From Curvibacter sp. PD_MW3 (GTDB taxonomy: Bacteria > Pseudomonadota > Gammaproteobacteria > Burkholderiales > Burkholderiaceae_C), in the NCBI GenBank assembly GCA_002633085.1, contig NSIV01000001.1:62001-126000 (forward strand): a DNA stretch of 64,000 nt. Reading direction: 5' to 3'. Position numbers and translations under genes: made by a program. Below, one piece after another: positions 42,629 to 63,631 of the stretch (positions are counted from its first letter, which is position 1; each line of letters begins with the position of its first letter). The notes below the pieces were generated by a model. That model was not told the DNA's origin, did not search any database, and worked only from the letters and a program-made list of their open reading frames with translations.

Positions 42629-43549
42629 ATGGACCGCCTGACAGCAGTACGCGTATTCGTAGAAGTGGCCGATCGCGGCAGTCTCACCCAGACCGCCGAG
42701 CATCTGGAGATGTCGGCCGCGATGGTCAGCCGCTATCTCGCTGCGGTCGAAGACTGGTTCGACGCACGTTTGCTGCACCGAACCACGAGAAAAGTCAGCC
42801 TCACGGATGCTGGCTTCGCTGCGCTCCCCTCGTGCCGGCAACTGCTTGAAATCGCGGAAGAGGCTCAGCACATTGCCGCCGAACGCAACCGTGAGCCAGC
42901 GGGCGTGCTGCGTGTCACCACTTCCAGCTCTTTTGCGGATGCCCAGCTCACGGCTGCTCTGGTCGACTTCCAGCGCCAGCACGAACAGGTGGAAATCCTG
43001 CTGTCAGTCGGCGATAAGGCAACTGATCTGGTCGCTGAGCGGGTTGATCTGGCGGTGCGCATCACGAACAATCTGGACCCGACGATGATCGCGCGGCCGC
43101 TGGCACGCTGTCGTTCAATGCTGTGCGCTTCACCCGGGTATCTGGAGCGGTACGGTGTGCCGCACTCGGCCGAGGACTTGAGTCGGCATCGCAGCATCGC
43201 ACATGCTTTTGGCATCGGCAAGCAATACCGTTTCACCCGGGGCGGCGAGACGATCACGGTGCCGGTCGACTGGAATTTCCATACCAACGAAACGGCCGTG
43301 CTCCGACGCGCCGTACTCTCCGGCGCTGGCGTCGGCGTGCTACCGACCTACTATCTGGGTGATGACCTGCGCGCAGGTCGCTTGGTGCATCTGCTGCCGG
43401 ATCATGAGCCGGACGTGTTGGGCATTCATGCGATCTATCTCTCGCGTCAGCACCAACCGCTGGCCCTGCGCTTGCTGGTGGATTTCCTTGCCGCGCGCTT
43501 TGCCGGTGAGCTCGCACCGTGGGATCTGGCGCTCAAGGCACAGGCCTGA
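42629..43549 (+). CDS. LysR-family transcriptional regulator
   Basis: A 306-aa regulator. The N-terminal helix-turn-helix (MDRLTAVRVFVEVADRGSLTQTAEHLEMSAAMVSRYLAAVE) is followed by a periplasmic-binding-protein-like effector domain (about 90-295; GVLRVTTSSSFADAQLTAALVDF, VDLAVRITNNLDP, VLRRAVLSGAGVGVLPTYYLGDDL). It is divergent from the MBL-fold gene across a short AT-rich region with several T-N11-A-like motifs, and so likely controls that gene and the DsbA-like/SnoaL pair. The inducer is unknown. Confidence 0.92.
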   Translation: MDRLTAVRVFVEVADRGSLTQTAEHLEMSAAMVSRYLAAVEDWFDARLLHRTTRKVSLTDAGFAALPSCRQLLEIAEEAQHIAAERNREPAGVLRVTTSSSFADAQLTAALVDFQRQHEQVEILLSVGDKATDLVAERVDLAVRITNNLDPTMIARPLARCRSMLCASPGYLERYGVPHSAEDLSRHRSIAHAFGIGKQYRFTRGGETITVPVDWNFHTNETAVLRRAVLSGAGVGVLPTYYLGDDLRAGRLVHLLPDHEPDVLGIHAIYLSRQHQPLALRLLVDFLAARFAGELAPWDLALKAQA

Positions 43550-43565
43550 ATTGGAGGAGAACGAC

Positions 43566-43811
43566 ATGACCCCTTTGCTCGATATCCTTGCGCTGATGCG
43601 CCAGGGCAAATGGAACGAGGCCCACAACCTTGTCCAGCTCGATGATTCGGGGGCTGCAGCTTGGCTGCATGCCCTACTGCATGTGCAGGAGGGAGATCTC
43701 GAAGACGCCGAGTACTGGTACGAAAAATCAGGGCGCAACTTCCGTCGCCGGGGATCCCTCCGCGAAGAGTTGGATGAGTTGGAAGCCAACCTCCGAGGCT
43801 TGGTGATGTAG
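43566..43811 (+). CDS. Small protein of unknown function after the LysR gene
   Basis: An 81-aa protein beginning MTPLLDILALMRQGKWNEAHNLVQ from the ATG at 43566, with GGAGGA upstream and 16 bases after the LysR stop. It is mostly helical and acidic; AAWLHALLHVQEGDLEDAEYWYEKSGRNF looks like a single TPR-like helical hairpin. I recognise similar small proteins as conserved hypotheticals in Burkholderiales. The likely cotranscription with the LysR gene is directly visible; the function is unknown. Confidence 0.8.
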   Translation: MTPLLDILALMRQGKWNEAHNLVQLDDSGAAAWLHALLHVQEGDLEDAEYWYEKSGRNFRRRGSLREELDELEANLRGLVM

Positions 43812-43974
43812 CTCAAGTAGGCCACCTCAAGGCAATCCAACGACATCACCGCCCTCCGCACTTCCAGACAGATACGACTTGAGTGCGAGACCATATCCGC
43901 TCGGAGAACGTGAGCAAACACGGTCGGAAGCATAAATGCTCCGCCCCTTTGTGGAAGCAAAAGCGTTCCTAGGC

Positions 43975-44023
43975 GGCACGGTTATGGTTCCGAGGACACC
44001 CGGATATGGTTCCGGGGACATTT
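43975..44023 (-). repeat. Right copy of the island-bounding inverted repeat plus a tandem half-copy
   Basis: 43975-44001 is the inverted counterpart of 40319-40345. TATGGTTCCGAGGACA (43983-43998) is followed 22 bases later by TATGGTTCCGGGGACA (44005-44020), a direct repeat with one mismatch. Confidence 0.7.
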
Positions 44024-44050
44024 CCGGGGGAGGAACACGGCCATCAGAAC

Positions 44051-44127
44051 TGGCCTGCCCGGAGGGGATCGAACCCCCGACCCACAGCTTAGAAGGCTGT
44101 TGCTCTATCCAACTGAGCTACGGGCAG
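44051..44127 (-). tRNA. tRNA-Arg(TCT)
   Basis: A 77-base tRNA on the minus strand with encoded CCA. The acceptor CTGCCCG (44121-44127) pairs with CGGGCAG (44055-44061). The D-arm is GCTC..GAGC, the anticodon loop contains TCT (reads AGA), and the T-loop is TTCGATC. It is separated by only 14 bases from a truncated tRNA-Pro and so was originally the downstream member of a tRNA-Pro/tRNA-Arg transcript. Confidence 0.95.
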
Positions 44128-44141
44128 AGATCGTGAAGAGA

Positions 44142-44188
44142 TGGTCGGGGCGGTGGGATTCGAACTCACGACCCTCTGCTCCCAAAGC
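44142..44188 (-). pseudogene. 3' half of tRNA-Pro(TGG): left prophage attachment site
   Basis: From CCA (44142-44144) back through the acceptor CGCCCCG, the T-arm TTCGAAT and the 3' anticodon-stem GCAGA to the anticodon loop TTTGGGA, the sequence matches tRNA-Pro(TGG). At 44189 the match stops: the 5' half of the anticodon stem, the D-arm and the 5' acceptor strand are missing. This is the classical pattern of a tRNA gene split by a phage integrase, with the intact copy expected at the other prophage end. Identity core is about 47 bp. Confidence 0.9.
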
Positions 44189-44454
44189 TGCTGCACATTT
44201 GTTGAAAATCAACAACTTAGCGCAACTTCTTCTAACGACGAAGCTTGGATTGTGCCATGTCATCCCCTCTGAAGAGAATAGCGCGTTAGAAGATTTTTGC
44301 ACGCGGCAAAAGCACTCGCCACAAACAAAAAAACCCCTCCACCCGAAGGCGGAGGGGTATGAGGTCCCGAGTCCCTGATCAAGACCCAGGCTGGTGACAA
44401 CTGCAATTCAAAACAAACCGGCCGGCTGCGCCGCCAGCAGGCAAATAGCCCGGC
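44189..44454. other. Attachment-site-proximal non-coding region
   Basis: No convincing gene. It contains a perfect 17-base inverted repeat next to the att core (TTGTTGA-AAA-TCAACAA, 44199-44215), a pair of 10-bp inverted repeats (44228-44237 and 44284-44293), and a terminator. Such repeats could be integrase or excisionase binding sites; this is an inference. Any promoter for the downstream tRNA-Arg must now lie here or further right; I could not identify a good one. Confidence 0.6.
44324..44357 (-). terminator. Terminator at the end of the prophage late operon
   Basis: On the minus strand CCCCTCC and GGAGGGG form a stem followed by a run of seven T. It closes the lysis cassette and isolates the tRNA-Arg from late transcription. 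Confidence 0.88.
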
Positions 44455-44823
44455 TTAAATCTCTGCCTGGCCGGCGTAGGCGCCACGCCTGACCAGCGCG
44501 GCCGTGGCGGTGTTGCGGTGGACGTGCAACTGGGCGGCTATCTGCCCGGTGGTGGCCTGGGCTGCGCGCAAGGTGGCGGCACAGGCCACCTTGTCGGCCG
44601 ACAAGATGGGGCGGCTGCCTGGCTTGCCTGCCAGGGGTTCTGCCAGGATGCCGGCGTAGGCGCCCTGCCCGCTGAGTGCGCGGTGCAGGGTCTTGCGGTC
44701 GACCTCTAGGTTGATGGCAATGTGCTTGATGAGGTGACCGGCCAGCAGCTCATTGGCGGCATAGCGCACCTGCTCGGGCGTAAGCGCCGGCGGGCAGTGC
44801 CGGCGACGGCGGCCGCCTCTCAT
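44455..44823 (-). CDS. Small helix-turn-helix protein at the end of the lysis cassette
   Basis: A 122-aa basic protein from the ATG at 44823, which overlaps the Rz stop (ATGA). Two similar helix-turn-helix segments can be seen: LTPEQVRYAANELLAGHLIKHIAINLEVDRKTLHRAL and ADKVACAATLRAAQATTGQIAAQLHVHRNTATAAL. These resemble the DNA-binding part of Hin-type resolvases, but no catalytic domain is present. It is the last phage gene before the attachment site. The role is unknown; a regulator or a DNA-binding accessory factor is possible. Confidence 0.75.
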   Translation of the reverse strand: MRGGRRRRHCPPALTPEQVRYAANELLAGHLIKHIAINLEVDRKTLHRALSGQGAYAGILAEPLAGKPGSRPILSADKVACAATLRAAQATTGQIAAQLHVHRNTATAALVRRGAYAGQAEI

Positions 44824-45350
44824 GGCGTTGCCTCGGACGCGCGGCGCATCAGGTCGACCCGGCAGCTGGCATAGGCCAAGTTGATCTGGTCGGCCTCTGT
44901 CAGTCGCGCTTGAAGTAGTCCAGAAAGCTCTGCAGAAAGTAGCCCGCCGGCTTCGGCTCCGTCTGCTGGACGATCTGGGGCGCCGGTTGCTGGCGCTCCC
45001 TGGGGGCCACCACCACCGCACCCACGTCCGGGCTTGGCGTTGGGGTCCCACAGCTGGCCAGAAGGGCCAGCAAGAGCACGCAGGCGAGCCTGCAGGGTGG
45101 CCACGGTGTTGAGGTTCTTGGCATCTCGTTTCTCCTGTTCAGCAATTAACTCGCGGGCGCGGCGCTCAGCCTCGTTGGCGCGAGCGGTCTCAGTGGCCAA
45201 CAAGGCGGCAGCCTCGCCTTTCTGGGTCTTGAGCGCTTTTTCGTAGCGATCTGTAGCGCGCTGGTCGCCAATGTCCTGCTGGTGGTCGCGCCAGCTGGTG
45301 TAGCCCGCCCAAAGCGCTGCGCACAGGGCCAGGTAAAGAAGCCATCTCAT
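44820..45350 (-). CDS. Rz-like inner-membrane spanin subunit
   Basis: A 176-aa protein with an N-terminal membrane anchor (WLLYLALCAALWAGYTSW), followed by a long charged helix with coiled-coil character (about 25-95, rich in Glu/Ala/Arg) and a Gly/Pro-rich C-terminal part. This is the organisation of i-spanins, which with Rz1 fuse the inner and outer membranes at the last step of lysis. A separate lipoprotein gene is embedded in another frame, which supports the call. It starts in an ATGA overlap with the preceding 57-aa gene. Confidence 0.88.
   Translation of the reverse strand: MRWLLYLALCAALWAGYTSWRDHQQDIGDQRATDRYEKALKTQKGEAAALLATETARANEAERRARELIAEQEKRDAKNLNTVATLQARLRALAGPSGQLWDPNAKPGRGCGGGGPQGAPATGAPDRPADGAEAGGLLSAELSGLLQARLTEADQINLAYASCRVDLMRRASEATP
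44900..45124 (-). CDS. Rz1-like outer-membrane lipoprotein (o-spanin), embedded in Rz
   Basis: A 74-aa lipoprotein encoded wholly within the Rz-like gene in a different frame. The ATG at 45124 has AGGAGA at good spacing. A signal peptide ends in the lipobox LLASC (CRLACVLLLALLASC), followed by a proline-rich mature peptide (GTPTPSPDV ... QQPAPQIVQQTEPKPAG). Nested Rz/Rz1 pairs of this kind are well known in phages. The lipoprotein is expected in the outer membrane. Confidence 0.88.
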   Translation of the reverse strand: MPRTSTPWPPCRLACVLLLALLASCGTPTPSPDVGAVVVAPRERQQPAPQIVQQTEPKPAGYFLQSFLDYFKRD

Positions 45351-54994: not shown

Positions 54995-55446
54995 TCACTC
55001 CTGCGGGTTGTACTTTTGGGTTAGGCGAACTGCCTGGCTTTCCCAGAGCTCGAAGTCAGCCAACGAGAGGCGCAGCACTTCAGCCGGGCTGACCTGCCAG
55101 AACTGGGCGACTTCGAAGACGCGGTCGGTCAGCTCGCCGGCGTCTCTTCCTCGCCATCGCCCTGACCGAAAAAACCCATCACGATGGCCGTGCAGCGCGA
55201 GAAGTCGTTCATGCTGAGCGACTCGACCGAGCTCAAGGGAATGGCGGCCAGCTTCATGATGTAGCGGGCCACCACCTTCTGGCGTATCTCGACGCCTGCG
55301 CTCTTGCCGTCATCGCTGGGGATGATGAGCGTGGGCACGCCCAGCTCAATCACGTCCTTGGTGCCTGGATCACGCAGGGTGATCTCGCTCACCTCATCAC
55401 CGTGCGCGGTGATGGGCTTGCTGAGCTTGATGGTGGTGCCGCTCAT
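54995..55446 (-). CDS. Frameshift-extended tail assembly chaperone (predicted -1 fusion)
   Basis: If ribosomes slip -1 at 55168-55174 (T TTT TTC in frame), the 105-aa tail assembly protein is replaced at its end by a 57-residue extension reading RSGRWRGRDAGELTDRVFEV then AQFWQVSPAEVLRLSLADFE and LWESQAVRLTQKYNPQE, stopping at 54995. The fusion is 150 aa. The extension has no ATG or good start of its own, and its sequence looks like a genuine small helical tail protein. It sits between tube and tape measure, where lambda G/GT, P2 E/E' and many others use such a frameshift. Confidence 0.75.
55129..55446 (-). CDS. Phage tail assembly protein (Mu gp41-like)
   Basis: A 105-aa tail assembly chaperone: MSGTTIKLSKPITAHGDEVSEITLRDPGTKDVIELG is the standard start of the family, followed by MKLAAIPLSSVESLSMNDFSRCTAIVMGFFGQGDGEEETPAS. 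It coats the tape measure during tail assembly. Its ATG overlaps the tail tube stop by four bases. A slippery heptamer lies 13 codons before the stop. Confidence 0.9.
   Translation of the reverse strand: MSGTTIKLSKPITAHGDEVSEITLRDPGTKDVIELGVPTLIIPSDDGKSAGVEIRQKVVARYIMKLAAIPLSSVESLSMNDFSRCTAIVMGFFGQGDGEEETPAS
55168..55174 (-). promoter_or_regulatory. Slippery heptamer for -1 frameshifting
   Basis: On the minus strand T TTT TTC, in phase with the chaperone frame (GGT TTT TTC). It fits the X XXY YYZ rule. P2 uses a closely similar T TTT TTG at the equivalent place. Confidence 0.75.
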
Positions 55447-55802
55447 TGCCAGATGCCCTTCTTGCCACCGAATTCCAGTTCGATGGTGCCGTCTTCAGCC
55501 TTGGCAGCGGGTTCACCTTCGATGAAGGCCCCGCTGAGGGTGTAGACCTTGCCGTTGGGGAACTCTGCGGTGACGGTCATGTCGGTGCCGTTGCTCAGCT
55601 TCTCCAGGGGGAAGTCTGAAACGAAGATGGTGTTGACCTTGACGTAGGGCCGCAGCGCGGTTTCCTTTTGGCCGGCGGGGCCGGCCACGGCCATGACGGT
55701 CTCGCGTTTGACGGCCAGGATGGGGCACTCCACCCCGCCCTGCACTTCGAGCTGCTCGCCGTCGACCTTGATGTAGCAGATGCCTGCAACACGTTTTGCC
55801 AT
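55443..55802 (-). CDS. Phage tail tube protein (Mu gpM-like)
   Basis: A 119-aa tail tube protein: AKRVAGICYIKVDGEQLEVQGGVECPIL is the family N-terminus, and LRPYVKVNTIFVSDFPLEKLSNGTDMTVTAEFPNGKVYTLSGAFIEGEP follows. It forms the inner tube of the contractile tail. It follows the sheath gene by 36 bases, the normal sheath-tube order. Confidence 0.92.
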   Translation of the reverse strand: MAKRVAGICYIKVDGEQLEVQGGVECPILAVKRETVMAVAGPAGQKETALRPYVKVNTIFVSDFPLEKLSNGTDMTVTAEFPNGKVYTLSGAFIEGEPAAKAEDGTIELEFGGKKGIWQ

Positions 55803-55838: not shown

Positions 55839-57503
55839 TCAGGCGGTGGCCGGGTACTGCAGGCGGAACTGGTTGAGCACCGCGAAGATGCGCAGCTGGT
55901 TGACCAGGTCGGGCGGCAACAGGACGTTGAGGCGGCTGGGGTTGGTACCGTCGCGCTCGACGATCAGGTACTTAGCGAACAGCTCAGCGTTCTCCACCAG
56001 GCCCAGCTGCTCCATGTCTGCGTACTCGGCCAGCAGTTCGCCGCGGATGACGCTGGGCGTGACGATGGCCTGGCCGGCACCGAAGCGGGTACCGTCGTTG
56101 GCCAGCTTGTGGCGCGGGTACTTCTGGGTGATGCGGCTGCGCAGGCGGCGGGTGACTTCCGTCAGGGTGTGCAGAGTCTCGCTGTCCAGGTAGCTGGGGT
56201 CTGCCTGGTTGAAGGCGTTCTTCTGGTATGTGGTGATGGCGCGCTCCACCCGCAGCACGCCGCCAGAGACGAAGCTGGTGGCAATGCCGTAGTTGAGCAG
56301 GCTCTGGCGCTCGGTGAGCAGGAAGCGCTTGCCGGCACGCGGCGCCAGGATGTCGGTGAGCGGCAGGGTCTGGGTGGGGCGTGCGGTGTCGGCGTTGAGG
56401 CCCAAGGCATTGGCGCCACCGTAGGCGGCTGCATATTCCCAGCTGGGGTTGGGGCAATCTGCGTCGATGCCAGCAATGGTGTGGTGCGGGTCATTGCGCA
56501 GGGCGCCGGCCGTGGTGAGCGCACTGAGCGTGCCACGCAGAGCGGTGTAGCAGTGGCCATAGACCTGGCGGCTCCAGGACCAGCGGCCCACGGTGTCGTT
56601 CATCTCGGTCTGAAAGGCGTCCAGACTGGTGCTGTCGGTGTAGGGGTGGATGACGTAGTCGTACTCCTCATCCCCCATGGCGGTGATGACGGTACCCGTC
56701 AGCGTGGGGTTTGTGGCCCCGCTGGCCAGGAAGCCGCTGCCCGAATAGATGAGCGCCACGCCGGCCGGCAGCACTTCGCCGCCTGCCTGGCCGCGGAAGC
56801 TGTCTTGCACGGTGATGTCGTTGCCCGTGGTGCCTTTCCAGCGGCAGGTGAGCGTGACGGTGCTGGCCAGCACGGTACTGGTGACGGGCAGATCCGTGGC
56901 GGCATTGATGGCCGCATTGATGGCGGTGGCAATGGCCGTGGATGCGTCGGCCGCAGCCACCGGCACCAGGACCCGCTGCCCGGCGATGTACAGGCCGATG
57001 GTGCCGGCAGCAGAGGCTGGGCCGGCCACGATGATGGTGCCGGTGGCTTGAACACCGGCGCCGGCGTCAGCCACGGCAATGCACCAGACCTCGCCAAACG
57101 AGTCTTGCGCACGGTACTTGGCGTGCATGCGGGCCAGCATGGAGCCGACGCCGAAGAGTGCCTTGGCCTGGTCGGTGGTGCTCACCAGCATGGGCGTGTT
57201 GACAGCGGCCGTGCCCGTGCTGAGCATCTGGCCAACCAGCAAGGCGCGCTTGTTCTGGGTGAAGTAGCCGGCCTGGCTGTTGTCCATCTCGGCATAGAAC
57301 AGCGGAACGCGCACGCCGGTGGGGATGTTGCTGAACGAAATGGCGCCCACGGCCATGACGGCCACGCCGGCACCGGGGTGGTACAGGGTGCCCAGCACCG
57401 CTGCCAGCAGCACGGCAACGGTGAAGAGGATCTGCCAGCGGTGGCGGATCATGAAGGCATGGAGCGTAGCCAGGCCGACGGGTGCGATGAAGAGGTTGCG
57501 CAT
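55839..57503 (-). CDS. Tail sheath protein with an N-terminal hydrophobic leader
   Basis: A 554-aa contractile sheath subunit. From residue 50 it reads like Mu sheath proteins (MAVGAISFSNIPTGVRVPLF, then YAEMDNSQAGYF), with the C-terminal sheath domain (LTEVTRRLRSRITQKYPRHKLANDGTRFG). Residues 1-49 are extra: MRNLFIAPVGLATLHAFMIR, HRW, then a strongly hydrophobic stretch QILFTVAVLLAAVLGTLYHP. The start at 57503 has AAGGAG upstream, whereas no ribosome binding site precedes M50. Mu-type sheaths normally begin near M50, so a signal-anchor-like leader on this protein is odd. Confidence 0.9.
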   Translation of the reverse strand: MRNLFIAPVGLATLHAFMIRHRWQILFTVAVLLAAVLGTLYHPGAGVAVMAVGAISFSNIPTGVRVPLFYAEMDNSQAGYFTQNKRALLVGQMLSTGTAAVNTPMLVSTTDQAKALFGVGSMLARMHAKYRAQDSFGEVWCIAVADAGAGVQATGTIIVAGPASAAGTIGLYIAGQRVLVPVAAADASTAIATAINAAINAATDLPVTSTVLASTVTLTCRWKGTTGNDITVQDSFRGQAGGEVLPAGVALIYSGSGFLASGATNPTLTGTVITAMGDEEYDYVIHPYTDSTSLDAFQTEMNDTVGRWSWSRQVYGHCYTALRGTLSALTTAGALRNDPHHTIAGIDADCPNPSWEYAAAYGGANALGLNADTARPTQTLPLTDILAPRAGKRFLLTERQSLLNYGIATSFVSGGVLRVERAITTYQKNAFNQADPSYLDSETLHTLTEVTRRLRSRITQKYPRHKLANDGTRFGAGQAIVTPSVIRGELLAEYADMEQLGLVENAELFAKYLIVERDGTNPSRLNVLLPPDLVNQLRIFAVLNQFRLQYPATA

Positions 57504-57509
57504 GGCGGC

Positions 57510-57710
57510 TTACTCCTTTTTGCCTTGGGGTTTGCTGGTGGGGGCGGCGTCTGCCGCTTTTTGGGTGACGGGGGTGGACTCGACCACGTCGCCATCGTTG
57601 AGGCGGCGCTGCCAGTACTGGGTGGGCTCGACCTCGCGCCCTTCGGGCGGCAGGGTGTCGCCACGGGCCGGATCTACGACGCTTCGGCCTTCGGTGGGTT
57701 TGATGAACAT
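57510..57710 (-). CDS. DUF2635 family phage protein (Mu gp38-like)
   Basis: A 66-aa protein: MFIKPTEGRSVVDPARGDTL then PPEGREVEPTQYWQRRLNDGDVVES is the DUF2635 signature. It lies directly before the sheath gene in Mu-like tails. The function is unknown. The Lys/Pro-rich tail ends six bases before the sheath ATG, so the sheath ribosome binding site lies over the stop codon. Confidence 0.88.
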   Translation of the reverse strand: MFIKPTEGRSVVDPARGDTLPPEGREVEPTQYWQRRLNDGDVVESTPVTQKAADAAPTSKPQGKKE

Positions 57711-60281: not shown

Positions 60282-61646
60282 TCAGTTGATGAACTTCATC
60301 AGCTTGATGGCCTCGAAGTTCTGCACACCGCCACCAAAACGGCGGCGGAAGTTGAACTTCGTCTTGCCCTTGGCCGTGAGGTTGTCGCGGATCAACACGG
60401 TGCCGCTGCGGTTGACCACCACGTAGCCCTGTTTGAAGTCGCCGTAGGCAATGGAGAAGCTGTTTGCGGCCATCGTCGGCATGTTGTCGTCGATTTCCAC
60501 CGGGCTGCCCAGCAGTCGGCCACCAAAGCCAGTCAGAGGATCCGGCTGCCACAGATAGAAGTTGCCGCTTCCGTCCTTCATTTGGCGCACTTTGGACAGC
60601 GTTGCATCGCCCATGACAAACGCGGCGCCGGGGCGGTACTGCGACTTGAGCGAGTGCTGCAGGTCGATGATTGCATCGCCGGGGTTGGTGGCAGCGAAAT
60701 CTGCGCTGGCGCCAGACTTGATGAAACCGATCTTGCCCCAGCTGTAGCTGCTGTTGGCAACGGTATCGTAGGCAGTGATGCCGCGGGCTTCACCAACACC
60801 GGTGCCGCGGGCAAACTCAACGCCAGCCAGTTCAGAGAAAGCAATGGCAGCTTCATCCGCCAGATCCATCTCCACATCGATGATGGCGTCTTCCAGCGTC
60901 TCGTTGAAGACCCACGGCTCGGCTTCGGCCGTGTGGGCGGTGAATTCCAACTCAGCAAACTGCGGAGTGGAGGTCTCGCCGCCGGTGGCACCAGGGCCCA
61001 CGCGGCGCGCCGTCATGCCGGATTTCTTGGCCGACTTCTTGTACGTATCGGAGCCGATCGTCTTGACGGTGGCCAAGCGACCGATGGCGGAGACGACACC
61101 GACCACACGGATGATTTCGCTGTCCATCTCGGGCAGCACGAGCACTGCTCCATCGGGGATCGAGCCGCTGTTGTAAGCCTTGCGAGCCAAGCTCGCCAGA
61201 TCAGATTCGCTGCCGCCCTTGCGGATGAAGTTGCCGAAGGCTTGCTTGTAGGCGATCTGCTCTTCCGTCAGGTCGTTGCCCTTGGCGTCCTTGATGGCCG
61301 GGCGGTTGGACTTTTTAGCGATGTCGACCAGGTCGGTGCCGAGTTTGGTCAGCTCGCCATTCAGTTTTTCCACGGTTGCCTGCAGATCGGCGACAGCCTT
61401 GCCCTCGGCCTTGGCAGCTAGCAGCTCGTTATTCTTGCGAGTGAATTCGCCCCAGACCTCGGCCTGCTTGTCCAGCGCGTCCTTGATCTCCTTCGCATCG
61501 ATTTCGCCGCTCATGGCCATGGGCAGCATGCCCAAGCCTGCGAGGGCTTCTGGCGGGACCACGGGATGGCCGAGCAGTGCAGCGACAGCCATGACGGCGA
61601 CGATGGCCAGGAAGGCCAACGTCAGAGTTTTACGAGAGAATTGCAT
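60282..61646 (-). CDS. HK97-type major capsid protein with an N-terminal hydrophobic leader
   Basis: A 454-aa capsid protein. From about residue 45 it begins like an HK97 delta/scaffold region (MSGEIDAKEIKDALDKQAEV with a coiled coil to about residue 115), then the HK97 fold (EMDSEIIRVVGVVSAIGRLATVKTIGSDTYKKSAKKSG ... EPWVFNETLEDAIIDVEMDLADEAAIAFSELAGVEFARGTG). Residues 1-44 are extra: MQFSRKTLTLAFLAIVAVMA then VAALLGHPVVPPEALAGLGM, a classical signal-anchor profile. AAGGA six bases before the ATG supports translation from here; M45 has no ribosome binding site. The protease encoded upstream could remove the leader with the delta domain. Confidence 0.93.
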   Translation of the reverse strand: MQFSRKTLTLAFLAIVAVMAVAALLGHPVVPPEALAGLGMLPMAMSGEIDAKEIKDALDKQAEVWGEFTRKNNELLAAKAEGKAVADLQATVEKLNGELTKLGTDLVDIAKKSNRPAIKDAKGNDLTEEQIAYKQAFGNFIRKGGSESDLASLARKAYNSGSIPDGAVLVLPEMDSEIIRVVGVVSAIGRLATVKTIGSDTYKKSAKKSGMTARRVGPGATGGETSTPQFAELEFTAHTAEAEPWVFNETLEDAIIDVEMDLADEAAIAFSELAGVEFARGTGVGEARGITAYDTVANSSYSWGKIGFIKSGASADFAATNPGDAIIDLQHSLKSQYRPGAAFVMGDATLSKVRQMKDGSGNFYLWQPDPLTGFGGRLLGSPVEIDDNMPTMAANSFSIAYGDFKQGYVVVNRSGTVLIRDNLTAKGKTKFNFRRRFGGGVQNFEAIKLMKFIN

Positions 61647-61658
61647 GATGGTTCCTTT

Positions 61659-62372
61659 TCAGATTCGTTGAAGTAGTTCGGTGTTGTGCTTGATGGCGGC
61701 AACAATGTCGTCAAGCTCCGCACTGCCAGCGTCCTGCATGGCCTTGAGGTGCCGGAAGCCTTGGCTGATGACGATGCGGGCTTCCTTTCGTGACAACCCA
61801 GCGTCCTGCATGAGCTGCTCGAATTCGCGTTCGGTGAAGTCCATGCCAGACTTCACGCTTGAGATACGGGCCTTGCCGTTGGCTGGAAAAGTGACGAGGC
61901 TGATCTCGACCAGCTCCACCTCATGCAGCTTGCGGCGCGGCTCATCGGGCTTGGTGCCCATGGAGAACTTGCGGGGGATGTAGCCGATGGACAGGCCGGT
62001 GATGGCCGGCCGCGGTTTCATCTTCATTAGGGTGTAGGCTTCGACGCCCCGCTGAATGGGTGCCAGAACACCTTCGCTGGCCAGGCCCTTCTGGTCTTCT
62101 TCCAGCGTGTCCCAGACGCCAACCGGCATCAGGTCCTGGGCACTCATACCCCAGCCGCCGTGCTGCAACAGCATCGCAGGGTAAGTGCCGGACTTCCGAG
62201 CCTCCTTCAGCGTTTTGCTGAAAGCGCCCTCCTCGATCACGTCACCGTAGCTGTCGATGTTGCCGAAGACAGCGCCGTAGCCCTTGAAGCGCATCTCGCC
62301 TTCGGGTGCACCGTCTTTTTTCTCGATCACCAGGTCGATCAAGTTGACCCGCTTGTGCTCAATGGTGTTCAT
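61659..62372 (-). CDS. HK97-family prohead protease
   Basis: A 237-aa maturation protease (peptidase family S78 type) that cleaves the capsid delta domain. Features are FKGYGAVFGNIDSYGDVIEEGAF, the catalytic His in LLQHGG (H71) and the catalytic Ser in ITGLSIGY (S128), then ELVEISLVTFPAN. It lies between portal and capsid genes, 12 bases before the capsid start, in the standard HK97 order. Confidence 0.92.
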   Translation of the reverse strand: MNTIEHKRVNLIDLVIEKKDGAPEGEMRFKGYGAVFGNIDSYGDVIEEGAFSKTLKEARKSGTYPAMLLQHGGWGMSAQDLMPVGVWDTLEEDQKGLASEGVLAPIQRGVEAYTLMKMKPRPAITGLSIGYIPRKFSMGTKPDEPRRKLHEVELVEISLVTFPANGKARISSVKSGMDFTEREFEQLMQDAGLSRKEARIVISQGFRHLKAMQDAGSAELDDIVAAIKHNTELLQRI

Positions 62373-62374
62373 GG

Positions 62375-63631
62375 TCAGGCTCCAGTGCTTGCGCCGGCGG
62401 GGGCGCCGGTCGGGTCGGTGGTCATGTTGGTAGGGGTGAGCGGATCGTCTAGACCGGGCAGCGGGTCGAGATCCAGCTTTGCTCGCGCCTCATTGCGTAC
62501 CATGGTCCCGCCACGAGTGAGACGGTCGAGGAAGTTGGCGGTATCGTTCATGGCACCGCGCAACAGGCCCGCTTCGACCAGCTTGGTGTAGTACCCATCG
62601 GCTCGCTCCGCGTCGGTCAACAAGTTCACGTCGGCACTTTGCTGGATGCGCTCGTACCAGGGCATCAGAGTGTGGATGACGTGCGCCAGGAACATCTGCT
62701 CGGCACTCGCGTAGGTGGCGGTCTTGTCGGCGTCGCCCAGCATGATGGGCATGACGCGCATGAAGCGGCACACCTCGCGAAGCTGCTCGCGGCGGGTTTC
62801 GAGATGCTGGGCATCGACGCCGTTCATCGTTTGCGAGATGAACTTCGCATTGCGGTCGAGGATCATGACGCTGCCCTTGCTGTCGGCAGCGACCTGCTCC
62901 CTCTCGATCCATTCCTTGAGTTTCTGGTACTTGTCGGCGTCGAGCGTCCCCTCGATCGAATAGATGCCAGAGGGCTGCACGCCATTGGCATGCAGCTTGG
63001 CATGCGACTCTTCGGTGGCGATAGCCAGGCCCAGCGCCTCGCGCGCCAGGTTGAGCATGTCCATGCCCATGAAACCGTTCAGACTAGGTCCACGCACGTG
63101 CCAGATGGCCTCCTGCGGGAATTCCTGCGTAGCGCCGGAGTCGCTGCGCACCTTGTAGGTGATGCTCCAGTCCTGATGCTGTGTCGGCGTGACGCGGGCG
63201 GAATCAATCGGGATCAACTCCGCGATGCGAGATTCATCCCTGATGGAAACTACGTTCTTGAACGCGTAGGCGTTGCCCATGGCGGCATGGATCGCCATGG
63301 TCTCCCGAAACTCAAAGCTGCTCTGCCAGCCGTTGGGCTTGCGGTACAGCAGGTCATAGCGTGGATCGCTTTTCGCCTGGATGATCTTCGGGTATCGGGA
63401 GACATCCGACGGCATCTCGCGCAACAGCTTGAAGGGCACCTGCGCGATGCCCTCGCTGATAACCCGGATGCAGCCCAGGAACGCCGACACCCGGAAGGCT
63501 GTCTCGCGGTTCACGGTCGCGCCCGCCTTGGAGCGACGGCCGCCGTTAAGGATGGCCGACAGAATGGCTGGGTATCCATCGGCAGAACCGGCGCTCTTGC
63601 GCTCAACAACGGCGCGCGCAAAGGCCCCCAT
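62375..63631 (-). CDS. HK97-family portal protein
   Basis: A 418-aa portal. The sequences FRVSAFLGCIRVISEGIAQVPFKLLRE and RYDLLYRKPNGWQSSFEFRETMAIHAAMGNAYAFKN, plus RREQLREVCRFMRVMPIMLGD, are characteristic of HK97-type portals. The dodecameric ring forms the DNA entry point and nucleates prohead assembly. Its ATG overlaps the stop of the preceding 62-aa membrane protein (TGATG). Confidence 0.93.
   Translation of the reverse strand: MGAFARAVVERKSAGSADGYPAILSAILNGGRRSKAGATVNRETAFRVSAFLGCIRVISEGIAQVPFKLLREMPSDVSRYPKIIQAKSDPRYDLLYRKPNGWQSSFEFRETMAIHAAMGNAYAFKNVVSIRDESRIAELIPIDSARVTPTQHQDWSITYKVRSDSGATQEFPQEAIWHVRGPSLNGFMGMDMLNLAREALGLAIATEESHAKLHANGVQPSGIYSIEGTLDADKYQKLKEWIEREQVAADSKGSVMILDRNAKFISQTMNGVDAQHLETRREQLREVCRFMRVMPIMLGDADKTATYASAEQMFLAHVIHTLMPWYERIQQSADVNLLTDAERADGYYTKLVEAGLLRGAMNDTANFLDRLTRGGTMVRNEARAKLDLDPLPGLDDPLTPTNMTTDPTGAPAGASTGA

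What the first reader, a model, noticed from the sequence alone, without database searches (positions are those of the whole stretch)
57354..57503. Tail sheath protein also carries an extra hydrophobic leader
Independently of the capsid protein, the sheath has 49 additional residues with a hydrophobic helix before the Mu-type start (M50). AAGGAG precedes ATG 57503 and nothing precedes M50. A sheath subunit tied to the membrane is unexpected because sheath must polymerise round the tube. Two structural proteins of one phage with the same kind of leader (both ending in a Leu-Gly...His-Pro motif followed by Gly/Ala/Pro-rich sequence) suggests a common mechanism rather than chance.
Basis: partly seen in the sequence, partly recalled or inferred. 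Interest (0 to 1): 0.75.

Follow-up and report, generated by a model that had tools for sequence, protein, structure and literature searches.

The report
Removable hydrophobic leader on tail sheath
A phage hidden in a bacterial genome makes its contractile-tail sheath protein with an extra greasy, membrane-seeking front end that some close relatives share and others lack, so phages seem able to gain or drop it; what it does is not yet known.

Summary
The Mu-type sheath (55839..57503, minus) begins with about 54 extra residues holding a hydrophobic helix. They are translated: the N-terminal region's only Shine-Dalgarno start is the leader ATG at 57503. Six further full-length relatives, plus one cut by a contig end, carry such leaders with the same arrangement. 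dN/dS is 0.17-0.92 in the 19 of 21 pairs where it could be computed, and in the clearest comparison the leader is an in-frame 126-nt indel just after an unchanged start codon. Close leaderless relatives exist and leader-bearing sheaths are not one clade (p-AU 0.0012): the leader is optional, gained or lost repeatedly.

The capsid protein also has a real leader, but a common mechanism is not supported. Of 73 phages with both genes, 1 has both leaders, 4 the sheath leader only, 7 the capsid leader only (small numbers). No convincing homology was found; His-Pro is frequent in both sets but not universal.

Best reading: a membrane-directing helix-turn-short-helix leader tethers new sheath subunits at the inner membrane and is removed, or kept clear of the N-arm, before polymerisation. 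Anchoring is inferred. Signal-like leaders also recur on other HK97 capsid proteins in genomes of the window's order.

The parts
57342..57503 (-). Hydrophobic leader of the tail sheath, residues 1-54, in frame with the core
57513..57518 (-). Shine-Dalgarno AAGGAG serving the leader ATG (57501..57503)
   Evidence: only SD-preceded start in the N-terminal region of this ORF
57381..57440 (-). Main hydrophobic helix, residues 22-41 (predicted)
   Evidence: AlphaFold2 helix H22-41, block pLDDT 76 and 64; hydrophobicity
57351..57377 (-). Second, short hydrophobic helix, residues 43-51 (predicted, low confidence)
   Evidence: block pLDDT about 51
57279..57350 (-). Sheath N-arm region, about residues 52-75, low confidence in the monomer model; in Mu the N-arm takes part in the inter-subunit handshake sheet
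   Evidence: passages of PMC11915804
55839..57341 (-). Tail sheath core, Mu gpL-type (stop codon included)
   Evidence: PF04984, PF17482, PF17481, phrog_165; Foldseek best match Mu sheath 9khy
57510..57710 (-). Small gene before the sheath; relatives are annotated DUF2635; its stop lies between the sheath's SD and ATG
   Evidence: label from annotations, not tested here
61509..61646 (-). Hydrophobic leader of the major capsid protein, residues 1-46
60282..61646 (-). HK97-type major capsid protein
   Evidence: PF05065, phrog_10
61659..62372 (-). Prohead maturation protease (Peptidase_S78)
62375..63631 (-). Portal protein
55443..55802 (-). Tail tube protein, no leader

Best explanation
The sheath leader is a genuine, translated, optional N-terminal module of about 42-55 residues in a group of phages with Mu/SfV-like sheaths. 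SHOWN: start site, reading frame, constraint on the peptide, in-frame presence or absence after the same start codon, more than one gain or loss. INFERRED: the positive front plus hydrophobic helix engages the inner membrane, probably as a helix-turn-short-helix that leaves the sheath body in the cytoplasm, so fresh sheath subunits are held at the membrane and kept from polymerising early. INFERRED: the leader is then cleaved, or stays outside the inter-ring handshake of the N-arm, when the tail is built.
For: SD-preceded starts lie only at the leader in all 7 full-length cases (in L091 two adjacent codons). Leader-bearing L090 and leaderless L011 and L094 share the sequence up to and including the ATG and differ by a 126-nt in-frame block. 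dN/dS in the leader is 0.37 (window-L213), 0.21 (L006-L007), 0.31 (L006-L090) and 0.59 (L007-L090), against 0.11-0.18 in the core for the same pairs. Hydrophobicity is kept at 50-55% nucleotide divergence in L091 and L106 (p 0.010 and 0.002 against a neutral simulation). Net charge is +1 to +3 before the best hydrophobic window and 0 in the 15 residues after it in the 7 full leaders. AlphaFold2 gives helices 9-20, 22-41 and 43-51, then a low-confidence N-arm.
Against: No topology predictor or experiment was available. Summed Hessa-scale values (scale recalled, central values only) are marginal for the sheath helices, +0.85 to +4.0, against -1.8 to -3.0 in 7 of 9 capsid leaders. With a single inserted helix the charges predict the sheath body outside the cytoplasm, so the anchor reading needs the hairpin, whose second helix is only about 9 residues and low confidence. 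Hydrophobicity retention is not significant in the 4 closer relatives (p 0.12-0.43). dN/dS reaches 0.92 in one pair (L006-L091). Among 5 leader and 17 leaderless loci no gene family marks the leader loci, so no dedicated protease or partner is seen. Close relatives do without the leader.
Confidence: 0.42

Rival explanations
1. Cleaved propeptide without a membrane role: the leader masks the N-arm so that sheath cannot polymerise early, and a protease removes it at tail assembly.
For: It abuts the N-arm, which in Mu forms the inter-ring handshake (passages); the phage has a maturation protease; the junction reads G-[A/N]-[I/V]-S-[F/Y] in all 7 full leaders.
Against: S78 proteases are known to act inside proheads, not on tails (background knowledge). 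No cleavage site is demonstrable. A positive front and a lipid-length helix are not needed for masking.
Confidence: 0.25
2. Retained structural element: the hydrophobic helix packs in grooves of the assembled sheath and stabilises it.
For: In a T4 sheath model the N-terminus lies farther from the tube than the C-terminus (passage of PMC9230969), so there may be room.
Against: Leader dN is about 1.6 to 6 times core dN, with hydrophobicity kept better than sequence, unlike a packed interface; leader and leaderless cores are equally close to the window (L006 and L089, both 84%) and interleave on the tree.
Confidence: 0.15
3. Real but functionally near-neutral N-terminal extension, tolerated because the N-arm is flexible.
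For: Leader scattered among leaderless relatives, 6 changes on the tree, not significantly clustered (102 of 500 shuffles as low); fast evolution, dN/dS up to 0.92.
Against: dN/dS below 1 in all 19 computable pairs; open frame and hydrophobicity kept in 7 lineages.
Confidence: 0.15
4. Start-site artefact: the real start is M50.
For: An ATG lies near the Mu-type start in 5 of 7 full leaders.
Against: No SD there in any of the 7; L090 and L106 have TTG, not ATG, there; SD and ATG shared with leaderless relatives; dN/dS.
Confidence: 0.03

Closest known systems
Phage Mu tail sheath gpL/gp39 (9khy, 9ki1)
   Same: Core sequence and fold; query 54-547 aligns to chain 3-494
   Different: Mu has no leader; its protein starts where the core starts here
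SfV/ST64B/SfI-type sheaths and Paraburkholderia phage IPK
   Same: Closest named phage sheaths, about 52-65% identity
   Different: All 60 listed of 79 matching records align only from residue 55-57 (19 were not listed); the leader alone finds nothing at E up to 10
HK97 major capsid protein with N-terminal scaffold (delta) domain
   Same: Capsid protein, protease and portal here form such a head module; HK97's capsid protein has a 103-residue N-terminal scaffold, and scaffold projects into the procapsid (passages of PMC10275583)
   Different: An extra hydrophobic leader precedes the scaffold-like helices
Membrane-attached prohead initiation of phage T4 (recalled, not tested)
   Same: A virion precursor is built at the inner membrane
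   Different: There portal and helper proteins, not sheath or capsid subunits, contact the membrane

Membership tests
Mu-type contractile tail sheath | Sheath domain matches over the core | tested here: met
   PF04984 74.9 bits, PF17482 69.1, PF17481 32.3, all over cut-off; phrog_165 2.6e-190
Mu-type contractile tail sheath | Fold of a solved sheath | tested here: met
   Foldseek 9khy_a E 9.3e-47, TM 0.84 by target length
Mu-type contractile tail sheath | N-arm free to join the inter-ring handshake in the particle | not testable with these tools
   About 54 residues precede it in the primary product; whether they stay is unknown
Inner-membrane anchor | Hydrophobic helix with positive N-flank | tested here: met
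   KD19 1.58-2.20 and charge +1 to +3 in the 7 full leaders; Hessa sums marginal
Inner-membrane anchor | Insertion into the membrane | not testable with these tools
   no topology predictor or experiment
Cleavable Sec signal peptide | Conserved small -3/-1 cleavage residues | tested here: inconclusive
   By eye: Ala at -1 of the junction in 6 of 7, Asn in L106; no SignalP at hand
Leader family shared with the capsid protein | Detectable homology of the two leaders | tested here: not met
   hhalign probability 8.4%, P 0.004 over 11 columns; 3 of 21 shuffle tests below 0.05, none after correction
Leader family shared with the capsid protein | Co-occurrence in the same phages | tested here: not met
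   1 of 73 with both; 5 x 8 / 73 = 0.55 expected by chance; low power
HK97 major capsid protein | Phage_capsid domain beside protease and portal | tested here: met

The most novel reading that the evidence does not exclude
Some tailed phages direct their bulk shell subunits, capsid in some and sheath in others, to the inner membrane with interchangeable signal-like N-terminal modules, so that heads or tails are built on the membrane and released by leader removal.
Probability: 0.2. Interest if true: 0.85.

Novelty: new variant of a known kind. Interest (0 to 1): 0.52.

Why it matters
Tail sheath is a textbook soluble protein that must wrap a tube. A constrained, optional, membrane-type leader on it, gained or lost among close relatives, offers natural with/without pairs for testing where and how contractile tails assemble. 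Together with signal-like leaders on several HK97 capsid proteins, it suggests that membrane contact during virion assembly may be commoner than assumed. Eight paper searches showed no description of either leader among the papers listed; for these I saw only search listings with abstract starts (and only the top of longer lists), plus passages of three papers.

Tried and rejected
Common origin with the capsid leader: not shown. Start at M50: rejected. One clade: rejected. A first tree carried wrong labels, because copies of leader-bearing contigs had come in under other locus numbers, and was replaced. Dedicated partner gene: none found in 5 leader against 17 leaderless loci. Leader as a known Pfam domain: only weak matches below any cut-off at E up to 10, of three sheath leaders and two capsid leaders tried. 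The scan flagged many rows; most are tape-measure proteins, with some portal, protease, terminator and baseplate-type rows whose homologues are merely shorter. That only capsid and sheath rows are leaders is my judgement by eye. AlphaFold2 of the capsid protein was poor (mean 64.6, residues 1-51 under 50) and is not used. The leader profile A3 in 369 genomes gave the own genome plus 9 matches at E 0.002-0.01, taken as chance.

Full report
WHAT IS THERE. It holds most of a prophage on the minus strand: portal, S78 protease, HK97 capsid protein, tail terminator, a small gene whose relatives are annotated DUF2635, sheath and tube, with tape-measure- and baseplate-like genes after them (by position and homology). 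Terminase-like genes lie at and just beyond the right edge (recognised by eye, no domain search). The sheath ORF is 554 aa. The phrog_165 match starts at residue 54, and all 60 listed of 79 named phage records with a match align only from residue 55-57. Of 66 plasmid records, all 30 listed begin at 55 or 56. The leader alone has no match in the phage collection at E up to 10.

THE LEADER IS TRANSLATED AND CONSTRAINED. Seven distinct full-length leader-bearing sheaths were found: the window (near-identical contig L086), L213, L006 (Rhodocyclaceae MAG), L007 (Proteobacteria MAG; L087 has the same leader), L090, L091 and L106. L114 carries a hydrophobic stretch cut by the contig end. In each full-length case the SD-preceded start is at the leader (two adjacent codons in L091) and none lies at the Mu-type place; the leaderless relatives shown have theirs at the Mu-type place. 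The distance from the preceding gene's stop to the start is 2-6 nt in 5 leader loci and -11 to 3 nt in 23 of 25 leaderless loci (64 and 77 in the other two). In a DNA alignment, L090 and leaderless L011 and L094 share AAAAAGGAGTCCTAAGCCATGC and resume at the same core codons; the leader is a 126-nt in-frame block after the start codon. dN/dS in the leader is 0.37, 0.21, 0.31 and 0.59 for window-L213, L006-L007, L006-L090 and L007-L090, against 0.11, 0.18, 0.13 and 0.11 in the core. Over all 21 pairs it is 0.17-0.92 in 19 and not computable in 2. The leader is constrained, but less than the core, and distant pairs near saturation say little.

DISTRIBUTION. On a 57-row tree of sheath cores (7 leader, 48 without, 2 unassigned, among them L114) leader rows are scattered: 6 changes (starred branches alone force at least 2), and a single clade is rejected, p-AU 0.0012. 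Many deep branches are weak, so the number of gains and losses is open. Of 63 Phage_sheath_1 places in 299 genomes of the phylum, the 30 read were among the best-scoring, and only the window's own has such a leader; many of those are other sheath types.

SHAPE. AlphaFold2 predicts helices 9-20, 22-41 and 43-51 at low to moderate confidence, then a low-confidence N-arm, then a fold whose best PDB match is the Mu sheath. In Mu the N-arm joins the C-arm of a neighbour and domain I of the next ring in a four-stranded handshake (passages of PMC11915804). A helix attached there must be removed or kept clear. Charge before the helix is positive and none follows. One inserted helix would place the sheath outside the cytoplasm, so a hairpin or removal is needed for a working tail. 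The predicted break and short second helix fit a hairpin, but weakly.

THE CAPSID LEADER AND THE COMMON-MECHANISM CLAIM. The capsid leader is also real: it is present in L011, L086, L167-L170, L172 and others, and absent from L171 and L173-L175, whose capsid proteins are about 75% identical to the window's. But L006, L007, L090 and L091 pair a sheath leader with a capsid protein without one, and L011 and L178 do the reverse. Over 73 distinct phages in which both genes were recognised the counts are 1 both, 4 sheath only, 7 capsid only, 61 neither (hydrophobicity cut-offs, and capsid proteins found only by similarity to seven queries). The L090 capsid start there is uncertain because its frame runs on upstream, but no hydrophobic leader was seen. 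Profile comparison gives probability 8.4% (P 0.004 over 11 columns), and shuffle tests give 3 of 21 below 0.05, none after correction. His-Pro after the helix is frequent in both sets (5 of 7 each). The leaders share an architecture; a common origin is neither shown nor excluded.

A WIDER PATTERN. The scan of all genes in the loci and 30 of 49 capsid places from 200 genomes of the window's order showed hydrophobic leaders on several HK97 capsid proteins: 5 of those 30 including the window's own (L285, L292, L294, L296, L305), plus L024/L075 (Pseudomonas), L110, L178, L224 and L229 among the phage loci. Those last six were confirmed as Phage_capsid proteins. A class-level sample gave 0 of 18 loci read of 21 places, several of them fragments. 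Some look like ordinary signal peptides by eye (AxA in L296, L305 and L229; a lipobox-like LTAC in L294); no predictor was run.

VERDICT. A real and unusual module on a familiar protein: a new variant of the Mu-type sheath. Its membrane role is the most economical reading but is inferred. The natural with/without pairs make it directly testable.

Noticed in passing
L294, L296, L305, L285 (order-level genomes); L024, L075, L110, L178, L224, L229, L096: HK97 major capsid proteins with signal-peptide-like or lipoprotein-like hydrophobic N-termini ahead of the scaffold-like region, in several dissimilar leader types; 5 of 30 order-level capsid loci including the window's own. L096 is below the hydrophobicity cut-off.
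   Followed up: partly
window 61509..61646 and L011, L167-L170, L172, L294: Capsid leaders of the window type share a second element like PPEALAGLGMLPMAMSG after the helix; L294 (SPEALGAAALLPFLMGD) has a similar one behind a lipobox-like sequence (by eye).
   Followed up: partly
window 44051..44127: A tRNA-Arg gene stands near the left edge of the prophage, a possible attachment site; no exact 16-base match of 43501..45000 was found in the 19.5 kb fetched on the far side.
   Followed up: partly
L167, L169, L172: Capsid-leader head modules with no recognised Mu-type sheath in the roughly 9 kb held downstream, so the capsid leader seems to travel with the head module.
   Followed up: no
L249, L251, L255, L257-L261: Sheath relatives whose best match begins inside the core, after a stretch that looks Ig-like (Big_2-like by eye).
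   Followed up: no
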